In this document: positions 35,801 to 62,500 of the stretch, one piece after another
Numbering within the stretch: the first letter of the stretch is position 1
Layout: the number at the start of each line of letters is the position of its first letter
Source of the DNA: Plazaster borealis
Taxonomy: Eukaryota; Echinodermata; Asteroidea; Forcipulatida; Labidiasteridae
NCBI GenBank assembly: GCA_021014325.1
Contig: CM037469.1
Span: 19,367,701 to 19,431,700 of the forward strand
Direction: 5' to 3'
DNA: 64,000 bases
Program-made: the position numbers and the translations under genes
Notes under the pieces: model-generated
The model's input: only the letters and a program-made list of their open reading frames with translations
Databases searched by the model: none
What the model was told of the DNA's origin: nothing

Positions 35801-38800
35801 AGTTTACTGCAAGGGTTGTGGTTTCTTATGGGCTGTGGAAAAACTCACAACCAAATACCCAGCGTACAAAATCTGCTACATGTCTTAGCTTCAGGGTTAA
35901 CAGAGCCCACACACATCCAACCCTTTCATAAAATGAAACCCTTCCACCCATACGTTTATTGTATCAGGCGTTGCCGTTGATATTAGGCAGGAACTATGAG
36001 CAGCTCATAAACGTCACTGTAACCATTAGATAGAGGACACGTATAATATTTGTTTGATTATTGTTTTGTTCGACGGCACTCAGCAAAGTACAGCAAAAAA
36101 CATGCTTAGATAGCAAATAATCTTAAAATTATTGTTTTGTTCGACGGCACTCAGCAAAGTACAGCAAAAAACATGCTTAGATAGCAAATAATCTTAAAAC
36201 TCAGGATATGTTGGGTTTTTTGGAAGAAGGGGTTGCAAGGGAAAAAGTACTTTTTAAGGGAAGAGATACTTACTAAATTGTAACCAGATGATTCCACCAA
36301 GTGAAGTTTCCCATTGCGGTTCGAAAAAAACGACTTCCCTCCTTGGAAATGGTATTACTCCGCTCAGAATGATGTCAAACTGCTTGAACTGATCTTGTGC
36401 ATTGCCATTAACATAAACGTCGATGAATTCGCTGACCTTTGACAACATTGTAAACAAAAACATTACAATTCTCAAATAATACTAAAACATTAAAATTAAC
36501 GTTGCATTTAGGGTATCTGAGCTATGAAGATGTTGTTATTCTAATATTATTATTGTTATTTTGTAATTTCGGGTTCAAATTTTCTGAAAAAGTAGAGGTA
36601 TCACTAAAGAAAACAACAAATTATATAAAGTTAAAGTTTCAACAACCAAAGTTAAAAAAGTATATGCACACATATGTGAAAACATAATTACAAATCTACC
36701 ATTAAAATGAGTAAATAGAGAATATACGGCAAAAACTTGCATAATATTACTTATAATTTAAAATTTATGGGGATGTGGGTTGGTATTTAAATTCCGTGAT
36801 AGAAAAAATTGAGAATAAGAATAATACGAATATTGCTTACAAAGGTTCGGAAAAGAGACCGCAGGTCTTTCATGAGTTGGACGACAGTAAAAGGGTCGAT
36901 GTTTTGCAGATCAAGCATTGCCTCTAGCTCCCCAATCGTCATGTTTGCAATCCGATTACCAAGAGCTTCAAGACCTTTCACTTTAAATAATTGGAGAGAA
37001 AAGAAAATGTAATTACCAATTTGCTTTTAACATTTCGTTCCTGCCGCCTATCAACGCTAGTTCACTACAAACAAAAAATATCACGATCCGAATGTCAGCA
37101 AAACTTCATCAAAACAAGTTAATAACGAAAATATTCAATATTTAAGGTCCACACAAGTAGATAACAAAAAATGAAAAGCGTACATGTTAAACCACCGCCG
37201 ATGATCACATCCCCCTGCCATGCGCCTGAGTCCGCTCCAGGAGTCAGGCTGAGGTCAAACAAACTGGCTCCTCCTGCCGTACACAAACAAAAATAAAAAA
37301 AAACAATCAATTAACATGGAATTAATTTATGTGAGCTTAAAGCCGATTCATACTGTTGGGTCATGTAATAATATTTAATCTATTTATTTTGAGTTAATAT
37401 TTTATTTTACCAGACGTTACTGCGATGGATACATCTCTCCTTTTTCTTGATGGAACAGGTGACTTGTCCTCGTTACCAAATATAAAGGTACCCAAAGCTC
37501 GACGACTTTCGGTACCAGATCCAGCCATCCCTGGTGTAAAAACAATACAGAAACAAACCCGCAACAAATCTATCACACTCAATCCTGTATAGATAATCAG
37601 AAAAGTTGGTAATGCCAGGTTTAATAGCTGTTGCCCGAAATCCCAAAATGGTACTATTATGAACTACAAAGGGCCCTGTGAGAAAGCTTTTTTTTTTTTT
37701 TTGTAAAGGGTTCAGCACGGTTTAACCTTCAACACAACATTTCCAATCTTGCCGACTATCTAAAATTCAATGTCAAAACATTTTGACTTAAATTGTACGA
37801 TGTACCGTTGCAACATTCCTGTTGGTTGTTTGAATCCCAAACACCCTGTAACTTACAACTTAACTTCAACTATACATAATTGTGTATGCCCCATACAGTA
37901 TATTAACCCACATTCCTGCATATGTAATCATAAGCAATCATAAACTCACTTGGCTGTACATCTTTTTCTGGCTGAAGTCTCGTCATGATGTTCTCTTCTG
38001 AGGGAAGTATTCGCGAATCTGACTGAAGAATTCTCCTGAAATATTCAAGAGCTTTATCAGCTGAGCTGGTGGTAAAGTCTTCCATGTTGCTTTCATCCTC
38101 TTCAGAGTCATTGGTTCTATGATGAAAAGAAACATACATAAACATTATTGTTTTAAGTTTGATATACTTTGACACCCTTGTAAAGGATGTGGCATCTCAA
38201 CATAATCTTGGGCTTGTCACATGAAACTTAGAAATGTAACCAACGAAAAATGATACCCAACATTGTTGACATTGAGATAAAAGCTCAAACAATACTGATT
38301 TCTCGAGGTTTAGAAGCACAGTCGCTATTTTGACCTGTATGTTGACGACAAATTTAGGTTGTTATTTGATTTATATTTGGTTGTTATTTGACGGGTTTCG
38401 TTGAGATTCATTGTTATGTTTTCTGAATTGATCGCCTTGTCACATAAACTACTTGAGTGCACTCAAGCAGTGACTGGGAGTAGTTGTGACATTATGGACA
38501 TCCAATTCGAACAGCCACAATCACTTATACGTCAGCTTTCAAGCATAACCACATCGCTTAGAAATAAAAGCCTTATAAGTGACGGTGGCTAGTCAAATCT
38601 AGTGCATTGGAAGGAAAAGGTTTATTTTATAATCTGTCTTAGCCACAGTCATTACAAGGACACTTTGAACGTACAGGTCGTCCACGCTTCTTCTCTTCCT
38701 CCTGCTACTGCTTCCTTCCTGGCCACATTGTGAAGCAGAGAACATAGTGTCTTGTAGAATCACAATGGGATCAGTACATCTCCCTTGCCAGCACACGGCG

Positions 38801-41800
38801 AGGTCGAGGTCAACATCATAGACGGACTCATGGGGGCGCTCTATATTGTATCTAGAAAAAAAGGGAAAAGGCCAATACAATGTTTGATGATTTGGAAGTA
38901 TTAGTATAAAAAACAACAACAAAAACAACAACAACAACTTAACATTAAATTACGGTACTTTTGCTTTCGGGAAAGTATAAGCTTACCTAAATTTCACGTT
39001 ACCAATGCGTTTCTCCTGGGAATGCGCTAAAAAAAAAAAAAAAGCAAAGCAACAAACAAGTTAATTTCTTTCAGCAATTAGAATATAAGCAGGAGATTAT
39101 TTATTTGTGCCGTTTTTCTGTTTGTTCTTCGATCTCGTCATGTTTTCTTCGAAACATTCGAAGCATACACATTTGTTTTATATGCTGGGGGATTAACTAG
39201 CCATACTCTTTTATTGATAAACTTTGTTTCGTATTCATCTTTCATGGAGAGTAGACAGGCATTCAAATTGACTTACTTTGCAATGTTACTATGTTTAACA
39301 TTTCACTGTGACTCCATTTCTCAAATCCAAGTGAGAATCTACTGGCACATGTATCAAGTTTCATCCACACTGAAAATGACCTTTGAACTATGTCCAGGTC
39401 GAGGGTCAAGCAGCAACCAACTCCGAGACACGATTTATTCAGGGAACAATAAGACGCAATATACGATGGAATAGAGAGGGAACCACAACCTGAGATGAAC
39501 ACAAATAACAAATGAGTTTTTTCCTCTAAATACAAAGAACGGTTGAGTTTCAGTCCAAAGTTTGAGGCTGTTTGAACATCAGAGAAGTAAACGCATATCA
39601 CATTTAAGGTTCAAGTATCGAGTTTGTCTATCCTTGGGATGGTTTACCTGAGGTCGTAGGTGTAATCTGTTCTGGTGGAACACTACATGACTGAGGTAGA
39701 AGGACATCTGCGCTAACACCCAGGCGGTTAACCACCAGACCGCTCGCATAGTCTGTGACACTACCAACTTGAATACATAAAAGATGAAGTGTGTTGTTAG
39801 CCATTGAGCTTTTCAAGAAAAGTGTTATAAAAACCCTGTCACCAAAGTTATCTATTGTTGTCCCGTAGTCATCATTGTATTACTGTAAACCTCACTATAA
39901 CTTGTTTGGGTACTTTTGGTATCTTTCTTCAAAACTAAGGATTTTGAATAATTTTCATTGCTCCTCTATAGTAATTGCCCACTGTACACGATTGTAGTTT
40001 GTGTATATATATAATTATGGAAGAAAGCTTTCAACGAAGTTAATTTTGATCGGGATGCTACTCTAAGGGAAACATTCAAGTTCATCGGATTTTGATGTTT
40101 ACAGACAGAATGAACATTTCAACCTACCAAGGTCTACAGGCCACTCAAGTGTCCCCGTTGCATTACAGAAAGGGATTGGTGCCATGAAGCCATATAAGAT
40201 GCTGATGTCAGGAGCACATAATCCAGCAATGCATAATTTAGCAGAGAATGACAGCACAAAGTTCCGATTGTTTGATGTCTTGTCGATGGTGAATGAAATC
40301 GAGACCACATCACTTAGTGATTCTTTGATCTGCTTGCCCCACTTATAACTAAAGAAAAACAATCAAATATATGGAGCCATTACTAGAATAATTGTGCATA
40401 AATGTGTATTTTTGCGTTCATTGGAAAACAAAACCGACTAATAATATCATCAAATTTAGAATGAACTTCCAAGAGTAAAAGGGCTGGGACATTTTTGTTT
40501 TTAAGCAGCGACTTTACCTTAAGAGTGTGATATTGAAACTCCAATTCTCAAAGCCGACACTCGCAGTCAGTTCGCAAGGGTCTATAGTCAACCACGCCCG
40601 TAAAGTCTCAGTAGTGCTGCCTATGCCTGCTGTTAAACAGCACTCTACCCCGAGGCAGGCATCAGAATACTGGCAAACTCCCCCTGATGGAAGAGCAGGT
40701 AGTCGAGGCAGATGTGGACAGGCTGGAAATAGAAATGCAACCAGGGTGACGGTTTTTATAAATCCTGTTCTAACAATCTACATATAATTTTTCAAGTGCT
40801 GCTAAAATTTGTGTGTTAGTGTTGATAAAGTATTAAAAAGTTACGAATTAGTGAAAAGTATTTTATAAAAATGCATTGGAACTAGGAAAGGAGTCCCTAA
40901 TGTGGATATATATTAAAACATTTTTTTTAACAATTCAATTATTTTCTCTGCAAGACCCTCTTCCTCACTAAAGAACTCCGAACACTTATTGGAAACCTTA
41001 CCTGTGGAGCCACTCGTCTGTTCGGCAAGACATGGAGAGACTGAAACTAGACGTGTTGGTAGTCCTAGAGCCTGTGCAAGAACGTCTAATCCGATATTTA
41101 AATTGCCGAGATGGGAGATTGAAGTCAATCCTAGAATAAAAAGAAGAAAAAAAACAAAAAAAAACAATCATTATTGTCAAGAAGTGCCAGCTCCAGGCAT
41201 GCATCAAAAGAGGCTGGGATGGCCGGGGTTTTTTTCGGGTTTTTTTCTCGTTTTTTTTAATTTTTATTTTTTGTTGGGGGGTGGTGGTTCGTACAACAGC
41301 TTATCAAATTAAAGGTGGTCACAAGCCTTTGAAATTTAAGGCCTCGCTTTATATTATTGACAGTGATAACAACTGTAAGTTCTAGCACTGATTTGGTGTA
41401 GAAATATGTAAATTTAGAGATTATGTCTTAGAAGATATTACCTGGTAATTTTCTCCAGGAGATGGTTCCGTTGGAATAGCACTGAGGAAGTGGAGATATT
41501 GAATCGTTCAGGAGACCGATTCGACCTGTACAGACATCACCCACACATGCATCCATAGATAAACTTGATGATATTTTGCCATCAGAAAGTTCCAACTTGA
41601 ATCTATAAAGCAATATATTATATTTAGGTGGTTTTTCTTATGAGACACATTTTGAAGTTTTGTAGGTTGACTTTCACAAAGAAAATGTCTGAATAAACGA
41701 ATGGGCAAAGAAAAGAAAAGAAAGAATCCTACATGACCGATGCAAAGTTTCCGATGATGACCTCCTTATCGACACCAATGTCCAACTGTGACAATGATTT

Positions 41801-44800
41801 ACTGTACTTCCAGTTACCAAACTGTAACTTCAGCTGACCACGGCAGGGGTCAACCACCATTGAGGCACTGAAGGTGTGATTAAGTGGACCGAGGTTCACA
41901 TCAAGGCAGCACTTTATTCCAAAACAGGACTCCAGGATGCCACAGTGTGCCATTGAGTCGAGGTTGCCAGGAAGCTGCATGTCTGGACAATCTGAAACAG
42001 GAAAAGCTCACATTATGTTTGTATAGTGCAATTTGTTACATTGCTGAAAGTGAACAACAACAATAAAAGTTCATTAATGTATTGACAATTTCCCTAACAG
42101 TAACCTCTGAACTGTCAACCTCTAACTGAGGAATTCTGCGTGGCTGAAAATCATCTTTCTTCGGTTAAGTCAGAACTAATTTGACAGCCATTTATAATGA
42201 GAAAATTCAAACACTTTCGAACTTTGGGGGTGCTCTGTGGTTATTGGGTTAATGCGAGTGGCTGCCAAAGGCACCCTTGCATTCCTGATTCTTTAACACG
42301 TTGCAGCCGCGTCCTTTGCAATTCAGTTTCTCAGCTGCTAGTAAGGGTGATAGCCTCCTAAATTATTTATTTATTTAAAATTAGGCCAAGTAAAATAAGA
42401 AACAAGTTTCTCGTCCCGCCCGCCTCCTTTTTGGCCGCCGCCTCCTTTGTTTAACTATTTAAACAATAAAAATAATAAATAAAAATAAATAAAAATAAAA
42501 ATCTTAAATCAGATTTTTTTAAAGATTTAAAGCTGAAATCAATTTTTTGGAATAAAACTGTGTGGCATCTCTGATATCCAATTAGATGGGCCAAAATAGC
42601 AGCTTCGCCTCAGTAATTCCCAACTTTCTCATTACAATATCCCAGGTGTGCAGTCCCTAGCTAGTTGAGGGCTAAAAGGGTGATTCTCCTGACTTAAAGA
42701 TCATCAGTGTTTTGGCACCAAACCAAGCTTGGCGTTCTTTTCAGAGCGGAGAGCAACTGTTGTCGAAGGTGATGGTGCTGCGATTCTGCATTGAAGGGTC
42801 TTACAACTCATTTGTTTTGTCATAAATTGCATCAGTATACTCAAATAGCACAATATCTGTGAATAAATATACCTTGGCCAACCATATTTAGCATGGTGGC
42901 CATCTTGGAAAAAAATAGCTAAAAATTGAAAAATAGTAAATAGTAGCGCCCTGCCTCCTCCTTTTTTTTAAAAGTCCGGACGAGAAACTCGTTTCTTATT
43001 TTACTTGGCCTTACTTCGGTATGACTGTATCCGTTTCGGGTTTACACACGGATCACCATTGAAGAAGTCGGGGTTGATGCCTAGTTTGTTTAAGAGTAAC
43101 CCAGTTGCTCCCTGTACGATTTGTCCGGACACTGTTTCTACGAAACCATCAACTGTGAACGAAGAAAAGAAATGTGTAATTTGTTAAGGTCTAAATGTCA
43201 GTGCTGTATTAAAAATAACAGTTATTATTCCTCAGCTGGAAAATATGATCAACTTGAACAAGACATCTTTCACGAACAATGCGGCGTTTGTGGCGTGTCG
43301 TGGCCGAGTGATCTAGTTCACCGAACCCAAGCTCTGGTGTTGTCAGCAGCAGAGTGTGGGTTCGAATCCCGGTCGTGACACCTGTGCCCTTGAGCAAGGC
43401 ACTTAACCATAATTGCTTCGAAAAAGTTGGGAAGGTAGTGCATTCTGCTCTACCAGCCAGTCTCCTAGTGGATGATACCCATGCCTACATCCTTATGGAC
43501 TGTGAAGGGGGTAACCCTGTTTCAGCCCCAGGAGTAGATGGCAACGTGCCCCTGGTGACATTATAAGTGTAGTCCTCACTTGAAGTGGCCGTCCGGCCTT
43601 GTGAGTTGGGCGATATCTCATTAAAAAAATGCTTTTTGGTCAATGGTTGTTAGATTGTGCAAGGTTCATAAATGACATAAGATACCCACTAAAGCAAACA
43701 AACGCTCTATTTTGAAATTAACTTAAATTGTCATATTGTAAGTGACTTTTGAGTGAAGTGAGTACAAACTGACCTGAGAAGGTATAATTGCTGAAATCTT
43801 GATTGCAAACAGGGATTGGTATGGTCTGCACAATATCGACATCAGTACAAAGTTCATCGGTGCAGTATTCTAGAGTCAGGTCTACTTGAAACTCCCTGGA
43901 CTCATCGAGTTTGTTGATGTAATATCTATAAGAGAATTGACAATAACTACGTAATAATTACGAGTGATGAAGGTTCTTTTAAGATAGATCGAATAACAAT
44001 AATCTAGAAAAAAACAACAATATAAAAACAATTTTGGTATTTACTCTCTTGTGTTTGTCCATAATTTCTGTCAGAGACACATGATGAGTCATTAAAACCA
44101 TGATGACCTTGTTTCTTTAAGAAACGTCTTTGAGAAACTTTATTAATTTCAGAACCATGCTTAATTGAATAATAATGTATGTTTAACGTGTCTGTAAAAT
44201 TCATGTACTGCAACATTTTTACTTTTAAAGGGAGTTCTTGAAAACTTACCTAAGATTCATTCCAGGAGCCACTGAAACGATAGTCTCTTCACCTATTTTA
44301 AAAATAAATTAATATGACAAAAACATGTTGTAACACATGACACCTTTTGAAAGCACAGTTGGCTTTAAAAGTACATGTACATCGAACGCACAGAGTAATA
44401 TTTTAGAAGCATTAAATATTGGAATCGGAAACAAATACAAAATCTGAAGCATGGCCATACTTTCATTGTCTTACCCCACTCATATGTAAAGACTGATCCA
44501 TGTAACATCCAAGTCTCCAGACCTAATGTGAAGGTGAGGTCACAGGGGTCAAACTTAAACCACGCTCTTGCCGAGACATCAGCTATCTTCAGATCCAAAT
44601 CGAGGCAACATCGAAGCTCTGTGCAGAATTCTCCCACAATGGAGCAGTTGCCCAGAATACCAGATGTACTGGAACAAACGTCTTTTTGGAGTAGAATATC
44701 ATGGAGGAATTTACAAAACTACACCGTCTTTTGCACACTCAGTTGTGGGCAGTGTTGTGAATAAACTGGTCAACACTAACCAGTTAGAAAACAAATCAGC

Positions 44801-47800
44801 CGAACAGCACTCGCGCAATGTTTCAACATTGCCGACCAGTACTTTTTTGGCCGACAGTGAAAAAAATAAAATAATCTGAAGATCCTTTCCTTTATTTAAT
44901 GTTAGCCCCAGACGCCCTCGCCCTGTCCCAGGAGAATGATTGACACTCATATTGAGATCCAATTACCTCTTATCTTAATCCTCTGCAGTTTGTTATACAT
45001 TGTTTCAATTGGAAATACACTTGCTTCACTCAAAAGACAATCGAAGCGTGCTTTGTCTTTGTGGTTTGATGACCTGGTTTTGTGACCCTTATGAGTGGAT
45101 ATAGTGTTCTATTAAACCTAAAAAGTGTGTTGACATATGCTAGCTTATAAGTTTGATTTGATTGGTGGACACAGTTCAACAGTAAAGTTGAAATCACAAG
45201 TTTCGTTTAACTGTTTTGGAAATAAACCTAGGTGCACAACATAAATAATTTTAAAACGAATATTTTTGTGTCCTTATTGTAACATGAACAGCCAGTCAGT
45301 GTGATTACATAAAAGTTCCTGAGACATCCAATGATTTTATGTTTTAGTTGGAACAATTTTCATGTGTACAACAAACTCTTCCTACTGACAGAGAAAACAT
45401 AAAATGACTTGAATTAAATCAAAGTATGGTTCAGGAGTCAATGTAACAACAATTCATGTGATGATCAAAAGAAAAGTACTTTTTAGGGTGTAAAATATTT
45501 TTTTTTTCCAAAAGGGGGCACTGCCCCATTAAGCCCCCGCTGGGTGTTGCAACCCCTGGTGACAACACTGCTTGTAGGGACTTGCTATTGTTGTTATCTT
45601 AATCCCTTTTTCTGAAGAAATCCCCTGTAGGGACCAAGTTGAACAAAGAAATACATTGCGGGGACCTTTCTTGCATGGTGCAAAAGTACCCACAGATTAT
45701 ATCATTAGAACTTACATTAACGTAGAAGTAAACAAGTGACCTAGTTTGGGAAAAATTGTGATCAACTCGTCTTGAAACCAAGCAACTGTTTCTATGCTAA
45801 AAGTGTATCTCATACAATTGTATTAGAACATTAATCCAAACGTACCTTTTCTATGATTAGAGCATGCCCTCCCCGATAAGAAGTTGCCTAGATTCAGGTG
45901 TCGTATTGCTGCATCGACAGCAAATTGTCCAATATTGCCCCCAAGATATCCAAGAAATCCTAAAACTGTGCCATCTCCTATGTAGAAAGACATTGTATTG
46001 AAACTTGATTTTTAGGATCTATAACGTTTGCAATAAACTTGAGAGATTAAATACAAACAAAAGTAAACAGTTCAGTACAACATCGTTTATAGCCAATGTG
46101 TTTATCAATGCTCTGACACATGGTGAACAATAACCACGTACCAGGAAGAGTAAATGCATCTTCGGTGTTGCAGAGCGGTATTGGAAGACGACTTCCTTCA
46201 AACACAGTCAAAGTGTTACATGCTCCATCCAAACAGAAGACCAGCTGTAAATTCAGCTCAAACTGCTTGTCTAAAGTTATCTTATCCACACGCCATCTAT
46301 AACAAAGACGAAGATTTGGGTTACAAAGAATGAAATGTTTGGGGAAAATAGAAATCGAAATGTCCTTCTGAAGCTATCAGCAAACAAGCCAAAAAATAAG
46401 TCCAAACTGAAAAATGGCGGCATTGTCTGTTGAGAACTTTTTGTTTTCCAAAGCAAGATTAATCTAGACCCAAGGGTTGACCAACTAAGCTGTGATTACA
46501 AATACCTGACAGTCAGCACGCTGTTAACAACTTCCTCCCTGTAGTCACCAAAAGGATAGTGGAATAAAGTGATGCTTTGCTCCCAGTTCTCAAAGCCGAT
46601 GGACAGGTTGAAGTTGCAGGGATCCAAGATGAGCCATGCATTGACTGTATGTGTTACGATCTTGAAGTCCATCTCCAGACAGCATTTAATGCCAAGACAG
46701 GAATCAGTGAGGGAACAGGAGAGGAAATCAGGAAGCTGTTTGAGGTCGACACCTGGACAACCTTCAGAATGAAAGTTAAGTATTAGTCTTAAGTAGCCTT
46801 TATTGTCACAATGAGGAGGAAGTTGACTGAAATTGTTTACCTTTCCAACCGAATTGAAAACTTAACAAATTCATCTGCGAATTCTCTATAACAACACATG
46901 AACATGTTCTAAAACACTTACTGCTTTTTAGGGTGCCTGGGATTCCTCTATCACACTGTTCGCTCTGGAGATATTGCTAATACAAGTAAAACAAGAAATT
47001 GTTCAATTGGTTATTATTAAATGTTTTACTCCCCAATTGGTAGGCAACAACTTCTTGAGGCTGCGCCTCAAATTGTAGGGGCTCATGAACAAAAGTTTGG
47101 ATTTACGACAACTTGTTAAATTCATTAAAACATTGAATTTGTTCAGCTTTCACGAGTAATAAATAACAATTTCACTTAACAGATTTCCAACGTCAAAATG
47201 GAGGGGGTGAATTCGAAATGCATCTGACGTTAATGTCATCAGGACACAGCAGTGCTGTATTGATTAGAGCAAGAACTTTCTTTGCTTTTTTCTTCCACCA
47301 ATTTACATCATGGAATTGGGAGAAGTCACTATCAAACGATATGAACTTATATAAGTGTTCTTACATTCAATCCATATTTCTCCAGAACTAGGTCAATTGC
47401 TGAATCTCCGATACGACCTCCGAGTTCCCTGATAAATCCAGCTACCGTACCATCGCCTGGCAGGGTGAATGTAATAGCGTTGATATTGCAGATGGGTATT
47501 GGGACCCAGACATGATCCAGGATGGATGTTGTCACGCATGTGTTGTCAATGCACAGTTCAACATCGAGTGCCACAGAAATTACCTTCTTCTCCGTCAGCT
47601 TATCAACTGAATACCTACAAATCAAAATAACACATACACTTAATGATGGTAACTAAGTGTCATGAGAAGTATTTAATGACACTGAAAGTTACTTACTTTG
47701 ATATTAATTAAAATCATAATAGTGACAGGCTCTTGTATGAAATCTCAAAATGTCATAGCCCACCTTAACGTCACATCATCACCGATTGTTACACGTTTCA

Positions 47801-50800
47801 CCTGCCCCCAAGTGTAACTGAACAGAGTAAAGTTACGCTCCCAGTTTTCAAACTCCACATGAAGCTGGAAGTTACAGGGGTCCACTTTGATACTAGCATG
47901 GAGCATGAGTGTGGTAATGACGAAGTTCAGATTGACACAGCATTGGATGCCAAGACAATGATCATCGATTGAACACTGGATGGTGTTTGCCACGGTGGGG
48001 AGGGAGATCATTGGGCATTCTGAAATTGAAGGGAGGGCACAGAAAATAAGGGAAAAAAATAATTTTGTTCAAGAAGGGAATCTGAAAAAGCAAAAACAAA
48101 CAGTTTTGATTGTTTGTTTGTAAACTGAACCAAGATAAACTTAACGATAGAAAATACAAAACAATACTTCACTTGTATCCGTTGCCACATCTGCTGGTAA
48201 TTCACACGATCTCCCCCTTAAAACATCCTGGAAAAAACAAATGAAAAACCCTGCATATGAAAAACAAAATTCATAAAAGCAGCACACACTACCTTTGAGT
48301 AGTCACTGACAGTTTGCTTTCGTCTTTGCCGTTTTTTCATCTTAGATGGTTTTAAGTTTGATTTGATGACATGGTGAAACAAGATTCTGTCTTAACTTAC
48401 TTGTAAATTCAATTTTCTCAAAACCAAGTCAATTGCAGATTGTCCCACAGTGTCTCCAAGCTCCTCCAGGAATCCCCGTACAGAGCCGTCACCAGGTAGA
48501 GCCAAGGAGAAGTTGCTGTTACAGATGGGAATGGGGACTCTCTTTTCCTCCATGAGGGGGAAGTCCGTAGTCTCGTCGTCAACTTTGAGAGAGATTGCAA
48601 GATCAATCTCGTACTCCTTTGAAGCATCCAGTTTGTCAATGGAAAATCTGATGTCAGAGGAGTATTGAGTAAACATGAGTGAGCATCTATCACACATCGT
48701 TTCTTGAAGGAAATACAAAATAAAGCAAACTGTTTTTGTAAGCACGCCGCCAACATAAGTAACTATCAAATACTAGTATCCGCACTTTGTGTGACCAAAC
48801 ATACTTCCAACAACAAACATGTGAAAGTATAATCTCAATCGGTCATCGGAGTCGCGAACAAATATGGAAAAACCCCATTGCTTTTTTCTATCTAAAAAAC
48901 TAGCAGTATGTTTTTCAAAATCACCATTGTTTCAAGGCTATTGTTTCTAAGACAAATATTATATTGATAAGCAAAAAAGAGAAGACCTTGAGAAGATATT
49001 TGATACACTCGTATTAACAAACTTACTCGACACTTATCGCTTGTCCGATAGGGAATGTTTCCATTTTTCCCCACTCATGCGAAAACAACGACATGTTGAA
49101 GTACCACATTCCAACTCCAACAGAGATTTTGTAGTCACAAGGGTCGATCTCGAGCCAAGCTTTAGAGCTGAGCTGGGTAACTTTTAGGTCCAAATTGAGA
49201 CAGCAGTGCAAGCTTGTGCAGTGGTTGTTTATATGGCAGGAAAACGTGGGTAGGCCTGTTGAAAATTGAACTGGACAACCTATTGATTTAGAGAAGCAGA
49301 ACAGAGTATTATTGCTTCATTGACAAGGATGACTCAAAATCTTGGTTAAGATCTGTCCTAAAGGGTTCCGGGATTTAACAGGCCATAGTTGTTCATTTTA
49401 GGATCAAACATTAAAACTTACCTTCATCAATAACTGCTGGAGGAAGACTACACGAATCCATTGATAAGAAATTCTATAAAAAGAAATAAGTTTTATTAAA
49501 AATGTCTTTTTTTCTGTGCAGTTGTAATGTTGGCCGTTGAAATCTAAAGAGTAAAATGTTTTGTTTTTTAAATGTCTCTTGGCCCTTTACAAAGTTCTGG
49601 TTGTAGACACTGGTTATAGTCACCTTCAGCCCCAAACTGTCAAGCACCAAATATACAGCTGCATCAGTTATGACGCCTGCCAAGGTGTCCAGGTACCCAG
49701 CGATTGAACCATCACCTGGCAGGGAGAAGGTAGCATTTGGGTTACAGATCGGGATCGGCACATGGGCTCCCTGTAACAAGTTGATCGGTGTGCAGGTACC
49801 ATCTATGCACAGGGACACCGAGAGATCGATCAGGAATTCCTTCTGCGCAGACAACTTGTCAACTGTGAACCTGGTCACGAGGAAAATGAAACAAAGATGT
49901 CAAAGTGGGAGAGCAAATTTTGAAAGGTTGACCGATCTTCCAGATTTTAGACAGTCGGCTTCTGGCAGGGCAGCCTTCACTCAGAGTCCCCCGCTTGGCT
50001 TATTTTCTAGACAAGGTTATTTTATCGAAAAAGTTTCCACATTATGATGAGTATTATCAGTTTCTGTTTCCAAGGATCTCTACACACGATTATTTACAAG
50101 TTTATAAGATGTCTTATATTTTTAATGGCAGATATAATTTTGACGGTTTTGACAACTCATGAGTTCATGAATTTTATTTAAACTCGTAAGGAGGGAGTTT
50201 TTCCTCTATATAAAATGTGTGTTTCAAGTACTGCGTAAGAATAAATGTTGTGAATGTGGTCTTTGATAATTATAAGTTATCCGTTTTATGAATTATAATA
50301 CAACTCTAAAATTAGGTAGTGTTGACTTACACTATATGGACAGCATCACTGATGTCCACTGTTCTTTCCACACCCCAGTCATACTCAAGGAGAGTCAAGT
50401 TTTTAGACCAAGAGCCAAAACCAACATACAGCTTGAATTCACAAGGGTCAAGAACGGCAAATGCTGTGGTAGATAGTCGAGTGAAGACGAGGTCCAAGGA
50501 GGTACAACAATGCATACCAAGACACTGGTCGTCAACAGTGCAGGTCAGTACGTTCGTTGAATGTGGTTTGTTCATAAGTGGGCATTCTATTTGATTGAAC
50601 ATTAAACAGTTTATTAGAAGGAATAGTTTGTATATCCGAAGAAAATATTGCAATGTTTTCTTTACACAAACTTGCAATATAGTGAATTAAACATTAAGGC
50701 TACTGATAGGCCTACATACATGTCCACTTACGAAAACAAAGAGAACATTGTATAAATTAAATCATACCATTTAATATATCAAAGTTATGAAGGAAAAAAA

Positions 50801-53800
50801 AAAAGTTAATTTAAGAACAGATCTCTCGGCATGTTTGAAATGATGGCTTAGAAAACTCATGATGAACAGATACAAATCTATGTAATTTCCTGATAAAGAA
50901 GAAAAATAACCTACTGTTCTCTGCTGGAGCAAGTATCGTCAGGTCACAGTGCTGGTTACTGGCAAATTCCTGAAGAATAAACAGATTTGTCAAACCAAAA
51001 CGAAGAATATTCGTGACAATGTCCGGATTATACAGATACGCTGTTAAAGAATGGTCTAGAGTTAGTTTAGTTTACTAACCTCAATTCCAAGTTTTCGTAG
51101 ACCAGCCTGGATCGCTAAATCGCCGATGTTGCCACCGAGGTCCCTTGCTAGTGTTGCAAAGCTTCCATCACCAGGAAGCTCAAAGGAGGCATTGGGATTA
51201 CAGAATGGGATGGGGATGATTGCATCATTGAGGGTCGGGGTTGGGGTGCATTCACCATCCACGCAGAAGGTCATGTCTAAGTTGATCTTGAAGGATTCCT
51301 CGACCTTGTCAATGGTTAGACTGTGAGGAATTTGAAGACGTTCGATTATACAAATATAAAGTTTTATTAAAAATGAAGTGAAAACTCCTTATCTTTTGCA
51401 GTGCCTTGAACAACCATCTTTATCTTTATTCAATTTAGCCACGTAATTTTTAAATTATAGTGACGATATAACTACACTTAAGAGAAAATACGGTAACATT
51501 ATGTCCTTCACTCCAACAAATTCCATTTGTAATAAAATGAAGACTAATTTTGGGATGAATAAAGAAAACTAGACTAGAGCGTGACTTCAACTTGCGCCCG
51601 GTACTCTACCAACTGAGCTTTCTTTATCCTATTTTGGTTAAATCTTTGTTTGGGGTGGCAGTCAGAAGCCATTCAACCTGTAACTGCCGTATAACCAGAG
51701 ATCACACTGACTGGGCAACTTTTAAATAGAGACTTATGTATGAAATATGAACGCACAAGAGGATACGATACCTTTGATATTTCTTCACTGTTACCTTAAT
51801 GACATGGCATTGCCAATGGTGACCTTTTCCTTATGACCCCATTGATAAGAGAGGATTTGTAGTTCTTTACTCCAGCTTCCCAGTCCCAGTGACAACTGAT
51901 AGTTACAAGAATCAAAGATGAAGGAGACATTGGTGCTGATTGGGGTGAGTCCTGGGATTGGAAGCTCCAAACAGCAATCGAACCCCAGACACTTCTCTGG
52001 AAGAGTGCAGATGAGGTTTTTTGGTAGATGTGGAAGTCTGACATCTCTAGGACAAACTGCAGAAAGGTAATAGATGTGATGAGGTTAGGTAAGTAATTAT
52101 TGTTAGAAGATATCCATCATTGGCCACTTTCGGTGCGAGTTTCTGTCAAAAAACAAACCATGTGAAAATAATCAAAAGATCTGATGTTATTTTAGTTATT
52201 AAAAAACCAGGCGTGAAGCCAATGCGACAAGAAATATTGATTCACAAAACAGATTTATAAAAATGGGTATTCACATTGTCCACATTACATCAAACAACAA
52301 CATTACAGCAGTTTGCCGTCTCAGCAAAACATTTTTCTCTGATTTTGAATCCTTTTCCTGACATAAACCTTTGTACACGGGCCCCCACTTTCACCTCCAC
52401 ATTAACCTACCTCTATGCCATCCATTCTGTGTGACCTGCGGTCGAACACAAGGCTCTTGACTGATGAATTTCTACAAAAGACACACCATCAATTACGTAA
52501 ATCAAATGTTTGAAACTTAACTAAAATAAAATTTGAGAATTAACTAATAGGAGGATGGAGAGGAGGGCTGAAACTCATAAGAACACACGACAAGGAAAAA
52601 GGAGAAGGCAAGGTGCAGCAAACGTACTTTGTATTCTTAAATTCATTCTCACAGTTACAGAAATTAGAGATTATAAAACCTCTTTTACTTTCTAAAATGT
52701 CCCCTTCTACCTTTCAGTCTGGTTTACTTACTGACAATCCAAGAGCAGTGAGTACCGCCTCTATAGTTGACTCAGCGGCATTCTGTCCCACCATCTGCAG
52801 GAAGCCTGACACAGTCCCGTCACCTGTGTAATACAGTTTACAGTTGATATCTCTGTTTGTATCGTAAAACCCAGGACTAAATCACATGGAGCTGCTTATA
52901 AGCACCGACAAAATGATCTTAAGATGGAAAATAGTGTCTTTGCTCAGCAATTGAATTCAATGATGAAACATCCTCATCTGATCTAAGAAATTGAGATATT
53001 CATGTTCTTAGCGCAAAGAGATTTAGAACGCAACAACAACAATTGTAAAAAAAACAAACCTGTGTAAACAAACTTGTTGTTTTCGGTTAGTGTTGTGTTT
53101 CTGACTTCCTCTTTTTGTATAACAATTGGAAATATCAACAATGCTTGAGCGTAACGTGAAAAACCACCTCATCTTGTCCCTCCAGGTTTAAAGGGGGCTG
53201 TGTCATGATCAAAGCAGAGGGCGTGCGCCTGCAGTATTAAGTAGGTGATAATTCATTAGTTAATGTACAGCCACAGGCCTGCTTTGATCATGACGACCAA
53301 GCCCCTTTGATCTGTCGTACAAGCTGAAACATAATCTAATGTCATTGTTCCGTGCCAACGTTAGAGTCGTCCCAACTATAGTTGGGACCAGTCTGATGTT
53401 CATCACAAATTTTCACAAACTCTACAGAAACCTTGGCATCTCTCCTATGTAATTATTGCATACCTGGAAGGGCAAATGTTGCGTTCTCGTTGCATAATGG
53501 AATTGGTACCCGTGTTGCTTTCAAGATGTCAATAGAGGGCGCGGTATCGCAATCAGAATCGGGGAGACAAAGAGACAGCGACAGGTCCAAGACAAATACC
53601 TTGTCTTCAGTCAACTTGTTGATGGTGTAGATCAAGGTTAAGGCCTTGCCGATCTTTAGTTCCTCTTGGGTGCCTGATAATAATAAACGGAAATTATACT
53701 TTGTTTCCAACCCAATCAACTAAGTTTCGAGATGGCATTATATGGGACAACTTTATTAATGAAAAACCAAGTTCTCAGAATTACCAGTTGGAATACCTAA

Positions 53801-56490
53801 GTCCAAATACCAACTATGTTATTTTCATTCTAATAACCCTATGCAGGGTCAATTGATAATATTTTTCGTTGTGGTTTTCCTGATCATTCTAACCTTGTCA
53901 AAACTGAAGTCTGTATGCACCGCAATCAACTTCGCACAATTCCTGCTGAAGAAAAACACTGATATAATAACATTGTCCAGCCACAAAATACTCACCCCAG
54001 TGGTAGTCAAATATAGTGAAGGTCATCGACCACTTTCCAAAGCCCATGGATAAGGTAAACTCGCATGGATCAAGTACCAGCCACACATTACTTGATAACA
54101 CGGTGATTTGAAGATCAAGATCAACACAGCAACGCACACCTAGGCAGCGATCGGAAAGGTCACAGGTCAATGTGCTTGGAAGACGAGGGAGACTAACTTC
54201 AGTGCACACTAGAAAAACAAAGAGGGAAACAAGTTTTAAAAAACAAAACAAAATATTAAACATCGAATTTTTTTTTTAATGTTTCAATACGTTGTATTCT
54301 TCCCTACTACAAAAGGAAACTGCGAAATAACTCATGAAATAGAGAAAAAAACCAGCAAAGAATCATAATAAAAAATAATAATAATTGAAGTAAATTATTT
54401 TTTTTGTAAATGTAGAAAGTTGGTACATTGTGTTTTAATCCTGTAATGGACAACTTGATATTTTGTTCATACCATCCTGAGTTGTGGAGACACAGGGTCC
54501 ATCGTTAATCTTATCTCTTAGACCAATAAACTCTAGAAGAATGTTGATGGCTTGCTGACCGGCATTTCGACCAACTTCACTGATAAAATCAGTCAAACTA
54601 TTCTTCCCTGTGTATCAGAAGAAACATAATAGTAAATAATTTATAAAGCACCGTACTATTTAAATCTGATAAATTTGTCAATGTGGGCTCAATATTACTT
54701 TAGGAAGGAAAGCTTATGAATACTGTTCAACTATTCCATTTTTGACTAGTCTGGTTATTCTATTATAAAAATTTCCCCCCGTTTTTTTATTGCTATTATT
54801 TTTCTTTTAATCATCCTTAATAATGTATGTGGATTTTACTGTTTCATTATTTTTCTAACACTTTATTATTTTGTTAAATCCTTTAGTTAATGTGAACCTG
54901 TTATAAGAAGGGAACCCACACCAATGATGTCACGATCAAAGTTCTTATACCTGGCAGAGAAAGTGAAAAGTTGGAGTTGCAGAATGGAATCGGCACCATG
55001 TAGTCCTGAATGATGTCAATGTCAAAGATACACTCATCCCCGTTGATGGGGCAAACCGATGCTCCGAAGTCAATCTGGAACTGCGTCTCATCATCCAGTT
55101 TATCGATCGTGTAACTCAGTGTAAATGGTCCGATCTTCTGTTGCTTCACATTGCCTTAAAGCAAACATAACACAATATCACTTTAGATTAACACATTTTC
55201 CATTGATAAACTTTGAAAGGTTAAATCTCGGATGGCTCAACCTCTTGGTGGCTCACTTTTTTGCCTCTGGCATGACAGCGTATAACTTAAGAATAACTAT
55301 ATGCTAAGACCCAGTGGGCAAGTTTACACACAAAGTAATTTATGTTATCCTCAATAAAACGCCAATGCTCTTCGTAATGAAAAATAATGGTTACACTTGC
55401 TCCAATTCTAAACATTTCCTCAAACACTCACCCCACTCGTAACTCAACAACAACTTCGTGTACCGCAAATGCTGAAAGGCAATTGTAATCGTGAAATCAC
55501 AAGCATCGACTTCAATAAATGCTTCGAAAGAACGGCGGAACTTAAACCTGTGGATGTTGAGTTCAAGACAACAATCAAGACGAAGGCAGTTCTCACTGAG
55601 TGAGCAGTAAGCAATCTTGGCAACATCCTCGGAGAATGCTGGTAATATAAATGTTCCGCAACCTGCATGGAGACGAAGTTAAATGAAAAACAAAAGAGTC
55701 TTGAATTTAGTCATCAGCGACTTCTACCATCTGGCCTACTCACTTAACTAGTTCTCGCATGTTTCAAAGTCATTATCAAAAAGAGTTATTTTCCCCTTTG
55801 TGAAAGGTTGCACTTTTTTCAAACTTACTCCGTTCATCCTCAGAGAGCCTAATTTCTTGATCATGTCTACTTCCTGTTGTTGCAAGATCCCTGTCTACGA
55901 GTGCACCGATGAGCCGAGAGTCGCTTAAACTGGCTGGTGTCGGACAAGGCTCTTTTCCATCCAGAAGCTCCTGTTTTTAAAAGTGGGAGATGAGAGATGC
56001 AACCAATGTTTGTCATTCAAACTTTGTAAGTTTTATTATTATTATTATTATTATTTATTCAGCCATTTCAACAATACATGACAATACAAAATACTTCCAG
56101 ATGGGCTAGGAGAAACAAAAGCAAAATAATTACTGTGGTCCATAGACCTGCCTCCCTACATCTGGTTGTAATACAAGCAATAAAACGAGTAATAACATGT
56201 GTATAAAACAATTTATGTACAAAAAGATAGGAAAGTTAACTATATATAAATTATGTCTATGTACATCAAAAGTTGGCAATTAAAACAAATAATAATATAA
56301 AACATGGACTATGTGAGAGTAAAACCAGTTTAGGAGTGTAAAATTTGAGAAAGTTTGCACAGTGTAAACAACAAAATAACAAACAAAAAACAGAAAAATT
56401 CCTAAACACTTAAATAATGTAAAGAATATCCAGGATATGTAGAATGCAAATTAAATTTAATTGACCAAATCTATAAAGAAAAAAGAAAAA

Positions 56491-56537
<47 letters not shown>

Positions 56538-59500
56538 ATACATTAAAAAATAAAAAAAATAAAAAATAAAAAAATAAATAAATAAATAAACAAACACATC
56601 AAAAATATGTAAATAAATAATTTAATGGGTAAATAAAAAAATAAATGTATATAAATAAGTAACCCCTTGGAATATAGATAGAAAATAAATGAATAGACTA
56701 AATAAGTTAAAAGTAAATTGTGGAATTGCACATGGTTGTTATGAAACTGTAAACGCATTAAAGCAAGAGACCAATTAAGAAATATGAGCTGTAGCTACAC
56801 TATCTTCATGCTTCAGAGCGTTTAGAAAGGATGGCAGAGAAGTTAAAATGGCACAATTGCGGAATTCGATTGGCAGAGCTGACCAGAGCCTGGGAAATAT
56901 GTGGATAGCACTCAGATGCAAAGATTGAGTTCTGGCAAATAAGTGTTTGAATGTTAAAGCGCTATCATATCTATGGTTAACAACAATGTTCTTATTAACG
57001 GATTCACATTTAATTGCATTAAAAAGACACTTAACAACAAATGAGGTCATCAAACAATTACGGCGACTTGATAAAGAAGACCATTTTAAAGTAGAAAGTC
57101 TGTCGGTGTATGACATTTCTCCAAATCGTTGACCTAATATAAATCTAGTTGCACGCCTCTGGATTCGCTCAAGAGACTCCTCTTGAATCTGAGTTTGAGG
57201 AAGCCAAGCTGGAATCCCATACTCCAAGATTGGAAGAACTAGACTCTTATACAAACATAGTTTAGCACTAACAGATGAATTAAATGCAACAGTCCTTACT
57301 AATCCTAGCATTTTATTTGACGAGAAACAACATCCTTAACATGATCATTCCAAGTTAACTGAGAATTTAAAGTAACACCAAGGTACATAAATGAGTTAGT
57401 AATGGATAATTGAGAGTGATCTAACATGTAAATGGGCAGCTGCAAATTACGTTTTCTAGTGACATGCATTACTTTAGATTTAGTAGCATTAAAAGTCATT
57501 CCATTGTCGGTACACCAGTTGCATAGGTTGTTTAGATCCTGTTGTAAAACAGTTACATCATTAATAGATTTGATTGATCAATAGATTAATATGTCATCAG
57601 CAAATAATACACAACTAGAATTTAATCCAAATGAAATATCATTAATAAACAAGTTGAAGTTTCGTGTTTTGCATTGATACATTCTTTAACATCAGTGTAG
57701 ATAGTTGCGTATATTAAAGCCAATTAAAACAATGATACCTACTTTGTCAATGCCAAGCTCATCCAGGACATACTCAATCGCTGTATTTACCACTACCCGA
57801 AGAAGTGCCTCTCCTGTTTCTTTGATCAACATCTTCAGCCTGGCACGGCTGAAATACTCCTCGATGTCAACTAGTAGAGAATTAAGAAAATCAACAGTTT
57901 CAACAATGGTGTTTTAGGCCGATCAATAGTTAAGCACCGAGTTGGTATTGGATAGATAGTTGCATCGGATAAAGCATATAGGAAAACAACGGGGGAAGAA
58001 AGTCAATTCTGGGTAACACGCACGAGGGAGGAAGGGAGGGGGGGGGGGTCATCTTCGTGAAGAGATGCAAGATGAGCTCAGAAAGTATAAAATCAATCTC
58101 TAAGGGGTAAGTTTATACTATTTTGCAAAAAATTCTTACAACTATTCGTTCATTCAGCACCAATTTGACAAATGGGTTGACACCACTAAAACACCAGTCC
58201 GAGAGAATACATAATGTTTGAAGCAGAATTACATGTGACCTACTATCTGGCCAAGTGAATGTCCCATCAGGATTGCAGATGGGTAGTGGTACAGCCGAAT
58301 CTTGGAGCACATCGATGAATTCCAGGCAATCCGAGTCCCCACTCTCTGGGCAGAAACCCACGCTCATGCTGACAAGAAGTTGAGTTGATGTCTTTTCAAT
58401 ACCAAACCTTAAATTGATTATAATGAAATGATACTTGTGCTGTAACTGAGCAATATCCAAGCATTGAAGACCATCTTGTATTAATGCATGGCATCACACG
58501 CATTAGATGACCATGCAGTTAGATTCACTACCAAATGATTCAGTATACAGTTCAAATCCCTCATCAAACGTGTGCATCATTCTTTTTTCAGAAGACGACC
58601 AAGGGCCGATTTCACGAAGCAATATGATGAGTTGTCAGTATTACCATAGTGATTTGTATTATGACACAAAACTTTGCCCAGCAGCTATAATTCTTAGCTC
58701 TTTGTAAAATCGAGCCCAGAGCACAATGGTCGAAACGTCTATAAGTAACAATCCGCTTTTAATAATAATTTCGGAGGCTAATCATCCTTACTGGCGGCTA
58801 AATTGCGAAGGACGCGGCTTCAACGTGTTCGAGAAGCAGGCATGTAAGGGCGCCTTTGGCAGCCAGCCACATCGACCCATTATGACCACACAGAGAACCA
58901 ACGCACAACTCAACTCACATATGGCCCTGGCCGGGTATCGAACCTGGGTCACCTTGATGAGAGGCGAGCGCTTTACGCACAAGCCAACCATGCCACCCGA
59001 AAAGCAATCATTACTTTAAAAGAGATTTTAAGAGTCACCGCAACCTTATTTTAACAATCACTTCCACCATGCATAGCTTGTTCTTACTTCTGCTAAATTA
59101 TTAATCATAATCAATTACGGGAAAACAATCTTACCTGAGACGAAGTTTCATGTCATCAACAAAGGGTACGTCAAAGGGTATTGGTACTTCCCATTGTTTA
59201 CCTGAGGGTTCAATACAAAAAAACTAAATTAAAGACTGCCGAGAATGTGTTATAGTGGGACTTGATATCTCCGGAGTTGCAGTCACAATTTCAGAAAACC
59301 ATAACATTCACTTTACATATAGGCCTTAGTTTCTATGACCCTCGTCCTAGAGAGCAACTTTCAAATCTTTGATCATAATGCAACGTACTGCCAACGGGTC
59401 CTTGTTTGCTCTGCAGCTAAACGCAGACAGAAAACAAACCAACTCAAATTCCGTTCAATATGAAACACACTGATGTGTCCATTCTACAAGAACAACAACT

Positions 59501-62500
59501 TGTTCAATGCTCACTCACTGAACTCAGCATTTGGTCTCTCTAACTCTAACACAACTAAATCATGCACAACACATTGCTAGAAAAGGGCGCCAAAACAACG
59601 CATTCTGTCAGCGCACCTGGATAATCTCTTATCTTTACACAACTTGTAATTCATTGTAATACATTAACAAATGCGCGCGATAGTTCGTCCAATCACTGTT
59701 CAGTCCTTCCATGATCCGACGGGGCCACTCCAGTGCACCCGGCGACGCTTTCCTCCTATACAGAGAGCGTACATTTTGTGTTCGTTACAATAACAAACCG
59801 AGGCTAAGATGTCAAAATTCACAAGCTCAATGTCAATGGATTATAATTCACTGCTTTTTAAGAAATCCAACTAAGCTTGTTTTGACGCCAAGTTCTACCA
59901 GAAATGAGTCAATCTAGAAAGTGTAGACCTTATGCACTGATGTCATCAAGCCGCCATCCGCCACCTTAGAGGTAAACCGACGATGCAACATTGGAAACGC
60001 ACAGGCTTGGTCAAAGAACAACCTACTTTTGACCTCTTGGAAAGGGCGCCCTACTCAAATGACGTCAGGTGTATATTAAGGTATATTACCCCCTACTTAC
60101 CCCACTCTGCATCCAGTATATTAACAGTGTAGTTCCACGAGTTGACTCCAAGGATGAACTGAAACTCGCAGGGATCAAATCGCATGAATGCCTTGAAAGC
60201 CAGAGACACCATAAAGAGTTTAATGTTCATACAGCATTCTACACCCAGGCAACTCTCATCAATCTTACAGTAGACATTCTTAGGTAGGGAGACCTGAAGT
60301 AGCGGACAACCTATAGCGGATTGAAAAGACATACTGAGGTTTGTTTAAATATCCACGTTAACCATTCATAGATCTTGATATGTTTTTTTTTCCCATTACC
60401 CTTCTCCACTGTTCAGATTATTTTGAAGTCATATAAATTTGAAAAAAAAAAATGTTTAAAACAAATTAATTGTTTTCATTTTTCGGATGTGATATAAAAT
60501 CTGGTGCATTTTAAAACATCAGTCATGAGGTTAATACAATCGTTTAAATCTGACAGAAAATGGAGATCGAGTGTTGGCTCGAGCGACTGACGCATATTAT
60601 TCCCCAAGCCTATATTGCCTTCATATTCAGTGTCATGATCGGATTTGGCATCTGTAAAATTTTAACGGGCATGAACATTTACGGTCGTCGGGTTGTTTGA
60701 ATCGCTTGAGGAGCATCTTCCTGTCTCCTTGTGAGCTCAGACCTCGCTGTTGAAGTTCAATCCTTAAAATATCGTTGGTCATAGACTCGGGCAGAACACA
60801 CGGCTTGTCACTCACAAGTTTCTAAATAATGGAAACAACGTTTTTATTAGAAACAATTACACAATTTGCACTTTGTTTTGATAATGGTGACAGTCCATGC
60901 AGCGGTGTTGGCAGGACATTGACTTGACAACCAGGAGTCCTAATTTCAATAATAGAAGTGTAATTCTTGTTGGTTCATGTTTGAAAGCAATTTCTTATAT
61001 TAGTCCCTCATGGACATTTTGGGGTCAGATTTGCCATGTGTTTCTACTATGCAGTGTGCATTTCAAGGCACGCGCACTTAGTAAGACCAGCTTTGACACT
61101 GTTCAAACGACAGACAATGGGCAGACTGAAACCGTGTGTGATGTCATGCTGGGGTTCAATAGATAAACATTTTGTTTTGATAGATGATGTTGTATTTCGT
61201 GTTTTATTGTACTTCATTCAACATTAAGGGTGGATTATAAGAATCGGAAGATCTAAAATTGATTTTGTTTTCAGTTAAACTTACGACTATTGTATTGACA
61301 ACTTTAAGCAGTTCGTCTGCTGTATCGTCCAGTTGGAGCTTGCGGGCAAATGCTAGTATTGAGCTTATCTTCAGGTTCCGAAGAGTGAAGTTCTTGAAGG
61401 GTGACCCAGAGCCGAGTTTCGGTTGTGGGAGGCCGAGGGACTCCTGGGTTTTATCTCGACTACCTAACATTAGTGAACAATGAACTGCTGACACGTCATT
61501 TACTATCCAACGAACAATTAATTCACATCGAAATGTGCGCAAATTTGTCATTCATTCAAATTGTATTAATCAAGTGAGAACATTATTTACAGGTGTTTTA
61601 AGGGCAGGAAGCACATGAACTGGCAGCAGAGTTTTTTTCTTTTCTTGCGGGCCTGCACTGATCACAGCTTCAAATTAATTTAAAACAAGATACAAAAACT
61701 ATTGGTGTGGGTAAAACCAAATAATAGTCTTTATTTCTAATGCAAATTTAACATATATTAAATTGTTGCGGTACCAGCAGCTAAATCATAGGATTCGAAC
61801 TGCCTCTACCTACCGGGCAATCTCATTGGTCTAGCGTAATGACCTCTATCTAGAGTAGCAAAGGTTTTAGGCTGGAATTCCACCGGAGTAATTTGCTTGG
61901 CTAGGTTGGGCCTTTTTGTTGAGGTGGATGGAGAAGCTGCCCGCCTTGGACTCGTGTCATTCATTTTACCCTTCTTATTGTTACGTCCAAGTAAAGATCC
62001 TTCCTTCACAGTTTCGCCCTGTATTTTGTATTTTTGACGGAAAACAAAGTTGGTTTCATTTTAAACACAGAAATTACTAAGTTCAGCATTATGAAACCAT
62101 TATGTTTTGTGAGGATACGCTTTGTCCGGACAGATTTGATAATTGCCGAAAACAAATTGTTGCGATCTTTTTTGTGAAAACAAAAACACTTTTTCGTAAC
62201 ATCATAAATAGTAAAAGGGTATAATTGATTTGAATGGGATCCTTACCCTCCAAACTAGTTTGTAATCGTCACAGACTTGTATCCAATTCGGTATAGCCAG
62301 AGGTCGTTTAGCCAGGTAGTTACTGGGATCAACGTATCCTTCTTTTGCAGCTAAGTCGGCATCAGTCGGGTCATCATTAAGGGCACTGTCTAGAATGGAG
62401 GCTAGACGGTCTGGTTTGGTTTTCTTCATTGATAGATGGATGTAGTTAGGTGGTGCACAAGCTGTGGCACTCCCCACTCTGCCAATCTCGGTGCCAGCTA

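What the first reader, a model, noticed from the sequence alone, without database searches (positions are those of the whole stretch)
38675..60310. Twelve tandem copies of a cysteine-rich module that I cannot assign to a known family
Seen directly: twelve units, each with segment A (C...C-L-G-x-x-C-C, then L-D-P-C, a Trp, and Y-x-W-G), B (x-I-D-K-L, C-x-D-G-x-C, V-P-I-P-x-C-N, F-x-L-P-G-D-G), C (G-F-L-x-x-L-G...A-I-D-x-V-L-x-x-L-G-L) and D (short, one Cys-x-x-P). The order never changes over 21 kb. It is not an EGF, VWD/C8, sushi, HYR or FN3 pattern I know. This is the strongest candidate for an undescribed domain in the window.
Basis: partly seen in the sequence, partly recalled or inferred. 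Interest (0 to 1): 0.88.

Follow-up and report, generated by a model that had tools for sequence, protein, structure and literature searches.

The report
Undescribed cysteine-rich domain in lipid-carrier-like giant
An animal genome encodes a giant, probably secreted protein in which an unnamed, cysteine-rich domain is repeated twelve times, and its front end resembles the proteins that carry fat in blood and egg yolk.

Summary
On the minus strand at 60310-38675, 40 exons spell twelve modules of about 185 aa without a stop. The module matches no Pfam, NCBIfam or PDB sequence family in the scans made, yet an HMM of the twelve finds 155 further copies in eleven unnamed proteins of a brittle star, an amphioxus and molluscs. 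It is a real, undescribed domain: ten conserved cysteines, a confidently predicted nine-strand beta core, a weaker helical tail. Cysteine co-loss suggests disulfides 15-26, 48-127 and 106-111.

The array is the middle of one gene of about 63 kb or more. Upstream come a SAP domain, an M23-like piece and, beyond the window, a head that resembles lipovitellin and apoB by predicted fold and Vitellogenin_N by sequence (below cut-off). Downstream come a furin-type site, a PAN domain and FN3-like repeats. The genome holds seven such arrays, open and under purifying selection.

Best reading: a new branch related to large lipid transfer proteins, its modules forming a disulfide-locked rod. Lipid binding by the modules is untested.

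The parts
38675..60310 (-). array of twelve cysteine-rich modules (M1 at the high-coordinate end, M12 at the low end), 40 exons, open throughout
55829..60310 (-). module M1 (5 exons; last exon 55970-55829 has a weak SAP-like tail); counterpart of the first module of scallop, abalone and Mya proteins
54473..55662 (-). module M2; counterpart of the second module of amphioxus and three molluscs
52411..54208 (-). module M3
50915..52056 (-). module M4
49422..50586 (-). module M5
48173..49279 (-). module M6 (lacks both Cys106 and Cys111)
46922..48019 (-). module M7 (50% identical to an Amphiura module)
45846..46761 (-). module M8
43015..44681 (-). module M9
41002..41991 (-). module M10 (long branch)
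39648..40722 (-). module M11
38675..39489 (-). module M12, truncated after segment B
38689..38703 (-). RRKRR, furin-type site after the last module; of the 3 relatives whose models run past the array, P0009 and P0011 have such a site directly after their last module and P0007 has one after its second-to-last detected module
60683..60821 (-). SAP domain (PF02037, 25.1 bits, cut-off 23.9) before M1
61324..61389 (-). helical-looking stretch before the SAP domain; resembles by eye the same stretch of P0008 and P0010
   Evidence: read by eye
62241..63109 (-). M23-peptidase-like (LECT2-like by recollection) pieces, collinear with P0008 1065-1189 and P0010 1052-1172
   Evidence: no Pfam hit in the window's own pieces
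34522..38116 (-). region after the furin-type site, collinear with P0007 2919-3153 and P0009 2570-2820; exon edges provisional
32003..32211 (-). PAN/apple domain (PF00024, 6.7e-8)
16944..31704 (-). repeat tail called FN3-like (fn3 is precomputed for P0007; three window pieces scanned had no fn3 match), collinear with amphioxus P0007 3404-5173; exon edges provisional

Best explanation
SHOWN: the module is a genuine, undescribed domain of about 185 aa with ten conserved cysteines. It exists in tandem (5-27 detected copies per protein, partial ones counted) inside giant animal proteins of a brittle star, an amphioxus and molluscs. In this genome seven gene copies keep all twelve modules under purifying selection. 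SHOWN BY PREDICTION: the first 130 residues form a nine-strand antiparallel beta domain. [quoted passage not shown] disulfides 15-26, 48-127 and 106-111 lock each module, with 21-27 and 1-175 paired by elimination. INFERRED, mechanism: after the LLTP-like head, an M23-like piece and a SAP domain, the twelve disulfide-locked beta beads form a long, protease-resistant extracellular rod. A proprotein convertase cuts at the polybasic site after the last, truncated bead and frees or rearranges the C-terminal half with its PAN and FN3-like domains. The rod's most likely job is structural and binding (spacing and multivalent contacts of a coelomic or haemolymph lipoprotein, clot or egg protein). Lipid binding by the beads themselves is possible but untested. 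Confidence: identity as an undescribed conserved domain 0.95; LLTP relationship 0.85; rod plus convertase processing 0.45. The figure below is for the whole chain.
For: Gene model without stops and conserved exon by exon in six paralogues; dN/dS 0.24-0.41 in 21 of 21 pairs over 2051 codons, 38 of 40 exons usable; HMM finds modules in 11 of 11 homologues; no named sequence family; AF2 model with ten-residue blocks averaging pLDDT 84-96 over residues 1-130; cysteine co-loss, 9, 8 and 4 double losses against 1, 1 and 2 single ones; SAP over its cut-off; PAN; collinearity with amphioxus and molluscs. Head: lipovitellin 1lsh E 1.5e-7 and two apoB entries (3.8e-4, 4.8e-4) are the only three Foldseek chains under 0.001; Vitellogenin_N is hit by P0008 (4.8e-4, profile 326-563) and is the top Pfam family for joined upstream exons of two of this genome's own copies (5.6e-5 and 1.4e-4); those exons lie upstream of the window gene and of the two paralogues examined. 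Polybasic sites near the end of the array in 3 of 3 relatives that run past it.
Confidence: 0.6

Rival explanations
1. The modules are lipid-binding beads: small beta cups that each hold hydrophobic cargo, so that lipid capacity scales with module number, in place of the beta sheets that hold lipid in other LLTPs.
Confidence: 0.2
2. The module is a highly diverged copy of a known domain (VWD, a lipocalin, or the FAIM beta sandwich) and only looks new because sequence similarity has faded.
Confidence: 0.2
3. The array is an adhesion or clotting device and the LLTP-like head is incidental, as in crustacean clotting protein, an LLTP-related protein that forms a clot.
For: Crustacean clotting protein is a vitellogenin-related LLTP responsible for clot formation (passages of PMC1783640); PAN domain and FN3-like repeats downstream.
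Against: No cross-linking or ligand site was tested; nothing here shows coelomic expression.
Confidence: 0.15
4. The array is a relic or mobile-element artefact.
For: A reverse-transcriptase fragment sits in an M1 intron.
Against: Seven open copies, dN/dS 0.24-0.41; relatives across phyla.
Confidence: 0.01

Closest known systems
Unnamed giants of Amphiura filiformis, Branchiostoma belcheri, Mizuhopecten, Solemya, Mytilus, Haliotis, Pinctada, Mya, Ruditapes, Batillaria (P0001-P0011)
   Same: same module (HMM hits in 11 of 11); where a model covers a part, the same order of LLTP-like head, M23-like piece, SAP, modules, polybasic site, PAN, FN3-like (no single model covers all)
   Different: 5-27 modules detected instead of 12, partial copies included; amphioxus has a laminin-G-like insert between late modules (PF13385 precomputed; place judged by eye); the literature searches listed no study of them
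Large lipid transfer proteins (vitellogenin, apoB/apolipophorin, MTP)
   Same: head: lipovitellin and apoB the only Foldseek chains under 0.001, Vitellogenin_N hits below cut-off in collinear positions; polybasic site soon after that head in P0008 and P0010
   Different: no DUF1943, DUF1081 or VWD found in four giants; adds M23-like piece, SAP, tandem modules, PAN, FN3-like repeats
Human FAIM N-terminal domain (3mx7)
   Different: inside background Z; cytosolic, no ten-cysteine pattern (recalled)
VWD/C8, EGF, sushi, FN3 modules
   Same: cysteine-rich or tandem extracellular domains (recalled)
   Different: no such Pfam match at E<=1 in any of 29 modules scanned

Membership tests
[quoted passage not shown] passages of PMC1783640) | tested here: met
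   By predicted fold in a mollusc relative: 1lsh 1.5e-7, apoB 3.8e-4 (low-confidence model). By sequence: top Pfam family for partial head exons of two of this genome's own copies, 5.6e-5 and 1.4e-4, and 4.8e-4 in P0008, each below the gathering score of 24 bits; none in P0010; PDB sequence search listed no LLTP. I count it met on the fold and the position; by Pfam's own cut-off alone it would be inconclusive
LLTP: vitellogenin or Apo family | DUF1943, DUF1081 and/or VWD (passages of PMC1783640 and PMC10799875) | tested here: not met
   Pfam at E<=0.01 on P0006, P0008, P0009, P0010: none. None of these models covers the whole gene
LLTP: MTP family | LPD_N only (passage of PMC10799875) | tested here: not met
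   twelve modules and a long tail follow
VWD domain | Pfam PF00094 match | tested here: not met
   none in 29 modules at E<=1 or in P0001-P0003
SAP domain (for the piece before M1) | PF02037 over its gathering score | tested here: met
   25.1 bits against 23.9; the M1 tail only 13.1
Peptidase M23 / LECT2-like | PF01551 over its gathering score | tested here: inconclusive
   27.0 against 28.7 bits in P0010, none in window pieces, no M23 or LECT2 structure listed for the P0008 piece
PAN/apple domain (tail) | PF00024 over its gathering score | tested here: met
   32.7 against 21.4 bits
FN3 (tail repeats) | PF00041 match | tested here: inconclusive
   precomputed for P0007 and P0011; none in three window pieces of the tail
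FAIM fold | FAIM N-terminal beta sandwich | tested here: inconclusive
Lipocalin/FABP fold | closed beta barrel with lipid cavity | tested here: inconclusive

The most novel reading that the evidence does not exclude
This is a fourth family of large lipid transfer proteins, present since the common ancestor of molluscs, echinoderms and chordates, in which the usual lipid-holding sheets and VWD domain were replaced by an extensible string of a new disulfide-locked domain that itself carries hydrophobic cargo, so that capacity is set by module number (5 to 27 detected here) and release is set by convertase cleavage after the last module.
Probability: 0.18. Interest if true: 0.85.

Novelty: new variant of a known kind. 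Interest (0 to 1): 0.62.

Why it matters
A domain of about 185 residues that occurs in up to 27 detected tandem copies and is shared by molluscs, a brittle star and amphioxus has no entry in the family libraries searched, so thousands of residues per giant protein stay unannotated. The fusion to an LLTP-like head suggests that the superfamily of yolk and blood lipid carriers has an overlooked branch. Seven copies of the array in one genome, all under constraint, suggest a product needed in quantity or in variants.

Tried and rejected

Stand-alone modules: profile search with 29 modules against 5.8 billion proteins, 952 candidates of about 103-327 aa, none at E<=0.01. This does not exclude proteins outside that length range or without shared 5-residue words. 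No vertebrate, arthropod or nematode protein was among the 11 hits, but only about 8000 candidates were scored each time.

LECT2-like reading of the M23 piece: the PDB search listed 17 unrelated rows, mostly designed propellers; kept as a recalled resemblance.

Literature: the held library was searched for the architecture, for combinations of domains and for six locus tags; no listed title or abstract start concerns this protein. Seen of papers: passages of PMC1783640 and PMC10799875 only, the others as listings. Most subscription papers and preprints are not in that library.

Rows dropped: of 155 module hits in homologues 128 with near-full HMM coverage were used, with the 12 window modules, for conservation and co-loss (in one search a cysteine within two columns counted as present, except at 26 and 27); 29 of those 128 made alignment A1; 54 of 140 modules made the tree; 2 of 40 exons were left out of dN/dS. 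Upstream exons were examined for the window gene and for 2 of 6 paralogues.

Gene model limits: splice sites were chosen by a simple score. The 2255-residue join, and the last exon used, run on to 38602, about 24 residues past the chosen donor at 38675. The tail from 38116 down was assembled only to set a query length and broke down below about 27.6 kb. Co-loss rows include related sequences, so the p values overstate independence. M10 and M12 are long branches that may join falsely. The tblastn also shows off-diagonal matches between tail repeats.
Full report
1. What is there. The window is animal DNA: genes are split by introns, and it lies in a 560.6 Mb assembly of 717 contigs at C15:19367701-19431700. 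The array is on the minus strand. Six-frame translation, motif anchors and scored splice sites gave 40 exons for twelve modules, which join without a stop (the 2255-residue join runs about 24 residues past the last donor). All twelve modules begin at a phase-1 intron. The later introns lie at the end of A (phase 1 or 2), at LP|G between B and C (phase 1, when present), between C and D (phase 0, when present) and after D (phase 1).

2. It is not chance. An HMM of the twelve modules hits 29 of 1574 six-frame segments of the window at E<=1e-3, all on the minus strand between 38.9 and 60.3 kb, and 0 of 220 shuffled homologues. Mean pairwise identity of the modules is 31% (20-43%), so most duplications look old.

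3. It is not a named family in the libraries searched. Pfam gives one sub-threshold match for two window modules (0.068), only sub-threshold and unshared matches for three whole homologues (best SAP 0.028), and four weak families for 29 diverse modules, each hit by one member only. NCBIfam gives nothing for three homologues. PDB sequences give nothing with one module or with a 29-sequence profile.

4. Relatives exist but are unnamed. Two protein searches returned 3 and 8 proteins: brittle star Amphiura filiformis (34% identity over 99% of the query), amphioxus Branchiostoma belcheri, and molluscs (Ruditapes, Mya, Mytilus, Solemya twice, Mizuhopecten, Haliotis, Pinctada, Batillaria). They are called uncharacterized or hypothetical; one source names Pinctada's 'SAP domain-containing'. 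The window HMM finds 155 module copies in 11 of 11 (5 to 27 each, partial ones included). A profile search for stand-alone modules found none among 952 candidates.

6. The array is part of one giant gene. Before M1 lies a SAP domain (60821-60683; 25.1 bits, cut-off 23.9). Before that, pieces at 63109-62241 are collinear with the M23-like part of scallop and pearl oyster proteins, although they hit no Pfam family themselves. After M12 comes RRKRR (38703-38689). Three of 11 relatives run past the array: P0009 and P0011 have a polybasic site directly after their last, truncated module; P0007 has one after a truncated module that is followed by one more module-like hit. Downstream exons are collinear with amphioxus P0007 from 36957 to 16944, including a PAN domain. 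I call the later repeats FN3-like because fn3 is precomputed for P0007 and P0011; three window pieces scanned had no fn3 match.

8. Seven genes. The matches listed by the own-genome search with M7 (150 scored) fall at seven places: C15 16.36, 16.47, 16.62, 19.16, 19.30 and 19.41 Mb (the window) and C1 19.02 Mb (counts are lower bounds). In each of the six others all 40 exons recur in order. Over 38 of 40 exons (2051 codons) none of the seven has a stop, protein identity is 87-96%, and dN/dS is 0.24-0.41 in 21 of 21 pairs. The two paralogues whose upstream DNA was read also have head exons.

9. History. In a tree of 54 modules, M1 groups with the first modules of scallop, abalone and Mya (98/98) and M2 with the second modules of amphioxus and three molluscs (96/88); most of the rest cluster by lineage. 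So the start of the array probably dates to the common ancestor of these phyla. In Amphiura the counterparts of M5, M6 and M7 recur every third module.

10. Mechanism. Shown: conserved domain, constraint, collinear architecture. Predicted: beta core, LLTP-like head. Inferred: secretion, disulfide bonds, convertase cut, rod. I judge a disulfide-locked extracellular rod attached to a lipid-transfer-like head, processed after the last bead, the most likely reading (0.45 for that step). Lipid binding by the beads themselves is a live rival (0.2).

11. Known or new. LLTP families are told apart by LPD_N with DUF1943, DUF1081 or VWD (passages of PMC1783640 and PMC10799875). None of the last three was found in four giants scanned. 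The library searches listed no paper on this protein. I therefore call it a new variant of a known kind: an undescribed domain in an undescribed branch related to LLTPs.

Noticed in passing
window 11361-14361 (+): Non-LTR retrotransposon: endonuclease (PF14529) and reverse transcriptase (PF00078) in adjacent open frames; the third open frame has no Pfam match.
   Followed up: partly
window 57577-56778 (-): Reverse-transcriptase fragment (sub-threshold PF00078) inside the intron between M1 exons 57870-57743 and 55970-55829; that intron is 1772 bases here, but the two exons lie only 269-295 bases apart, start to start, in 5 of 6 paralogues (1229 in the C1 copy), so the insertion looks recent.
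   Followed up: partly
P0001 (Amphiura), residues 90-1558: Three-module super-repeat: counterparts of window M5, M6 and M7 recur with a period of three modules (about 550 residues) in the tree.
   Followed up: partly
window 60821-60683, 55970-55829; P0003, P0006, P0008-P0010: SAP domains, elsewhere typical of nuclear DNA-binding proteins (recalled), sit inside a probably secreted protein; over the Pfam cut-off in the window and P0008, below it in the others.
   Followed up: partly
P0007 between its late modules: A laminin-G-like domain (PF13385 precomputed) appears to be inserted in the module array of amphioxus.
   Followed up: no
P0006 residues 4065-4579: The Solemya gene model ends in a long low-complexity repeat that is probably an annotation artefact.
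   Followed up: no
window 28511-28582 (+): ARAGORN calls a tRNA-Ser within the span of the giant gene; possibly a tRNA-derived SINE.
   Followed up: no
window 36057-36199 and 23912-24143: A perfect 71-base tandem duplication and a 46-base repeat in five copies, both within the span of the giant gene.
   Followed up: no
window 43290-43620: Looks like a dispersed element (from reading only).
   Followed up: no
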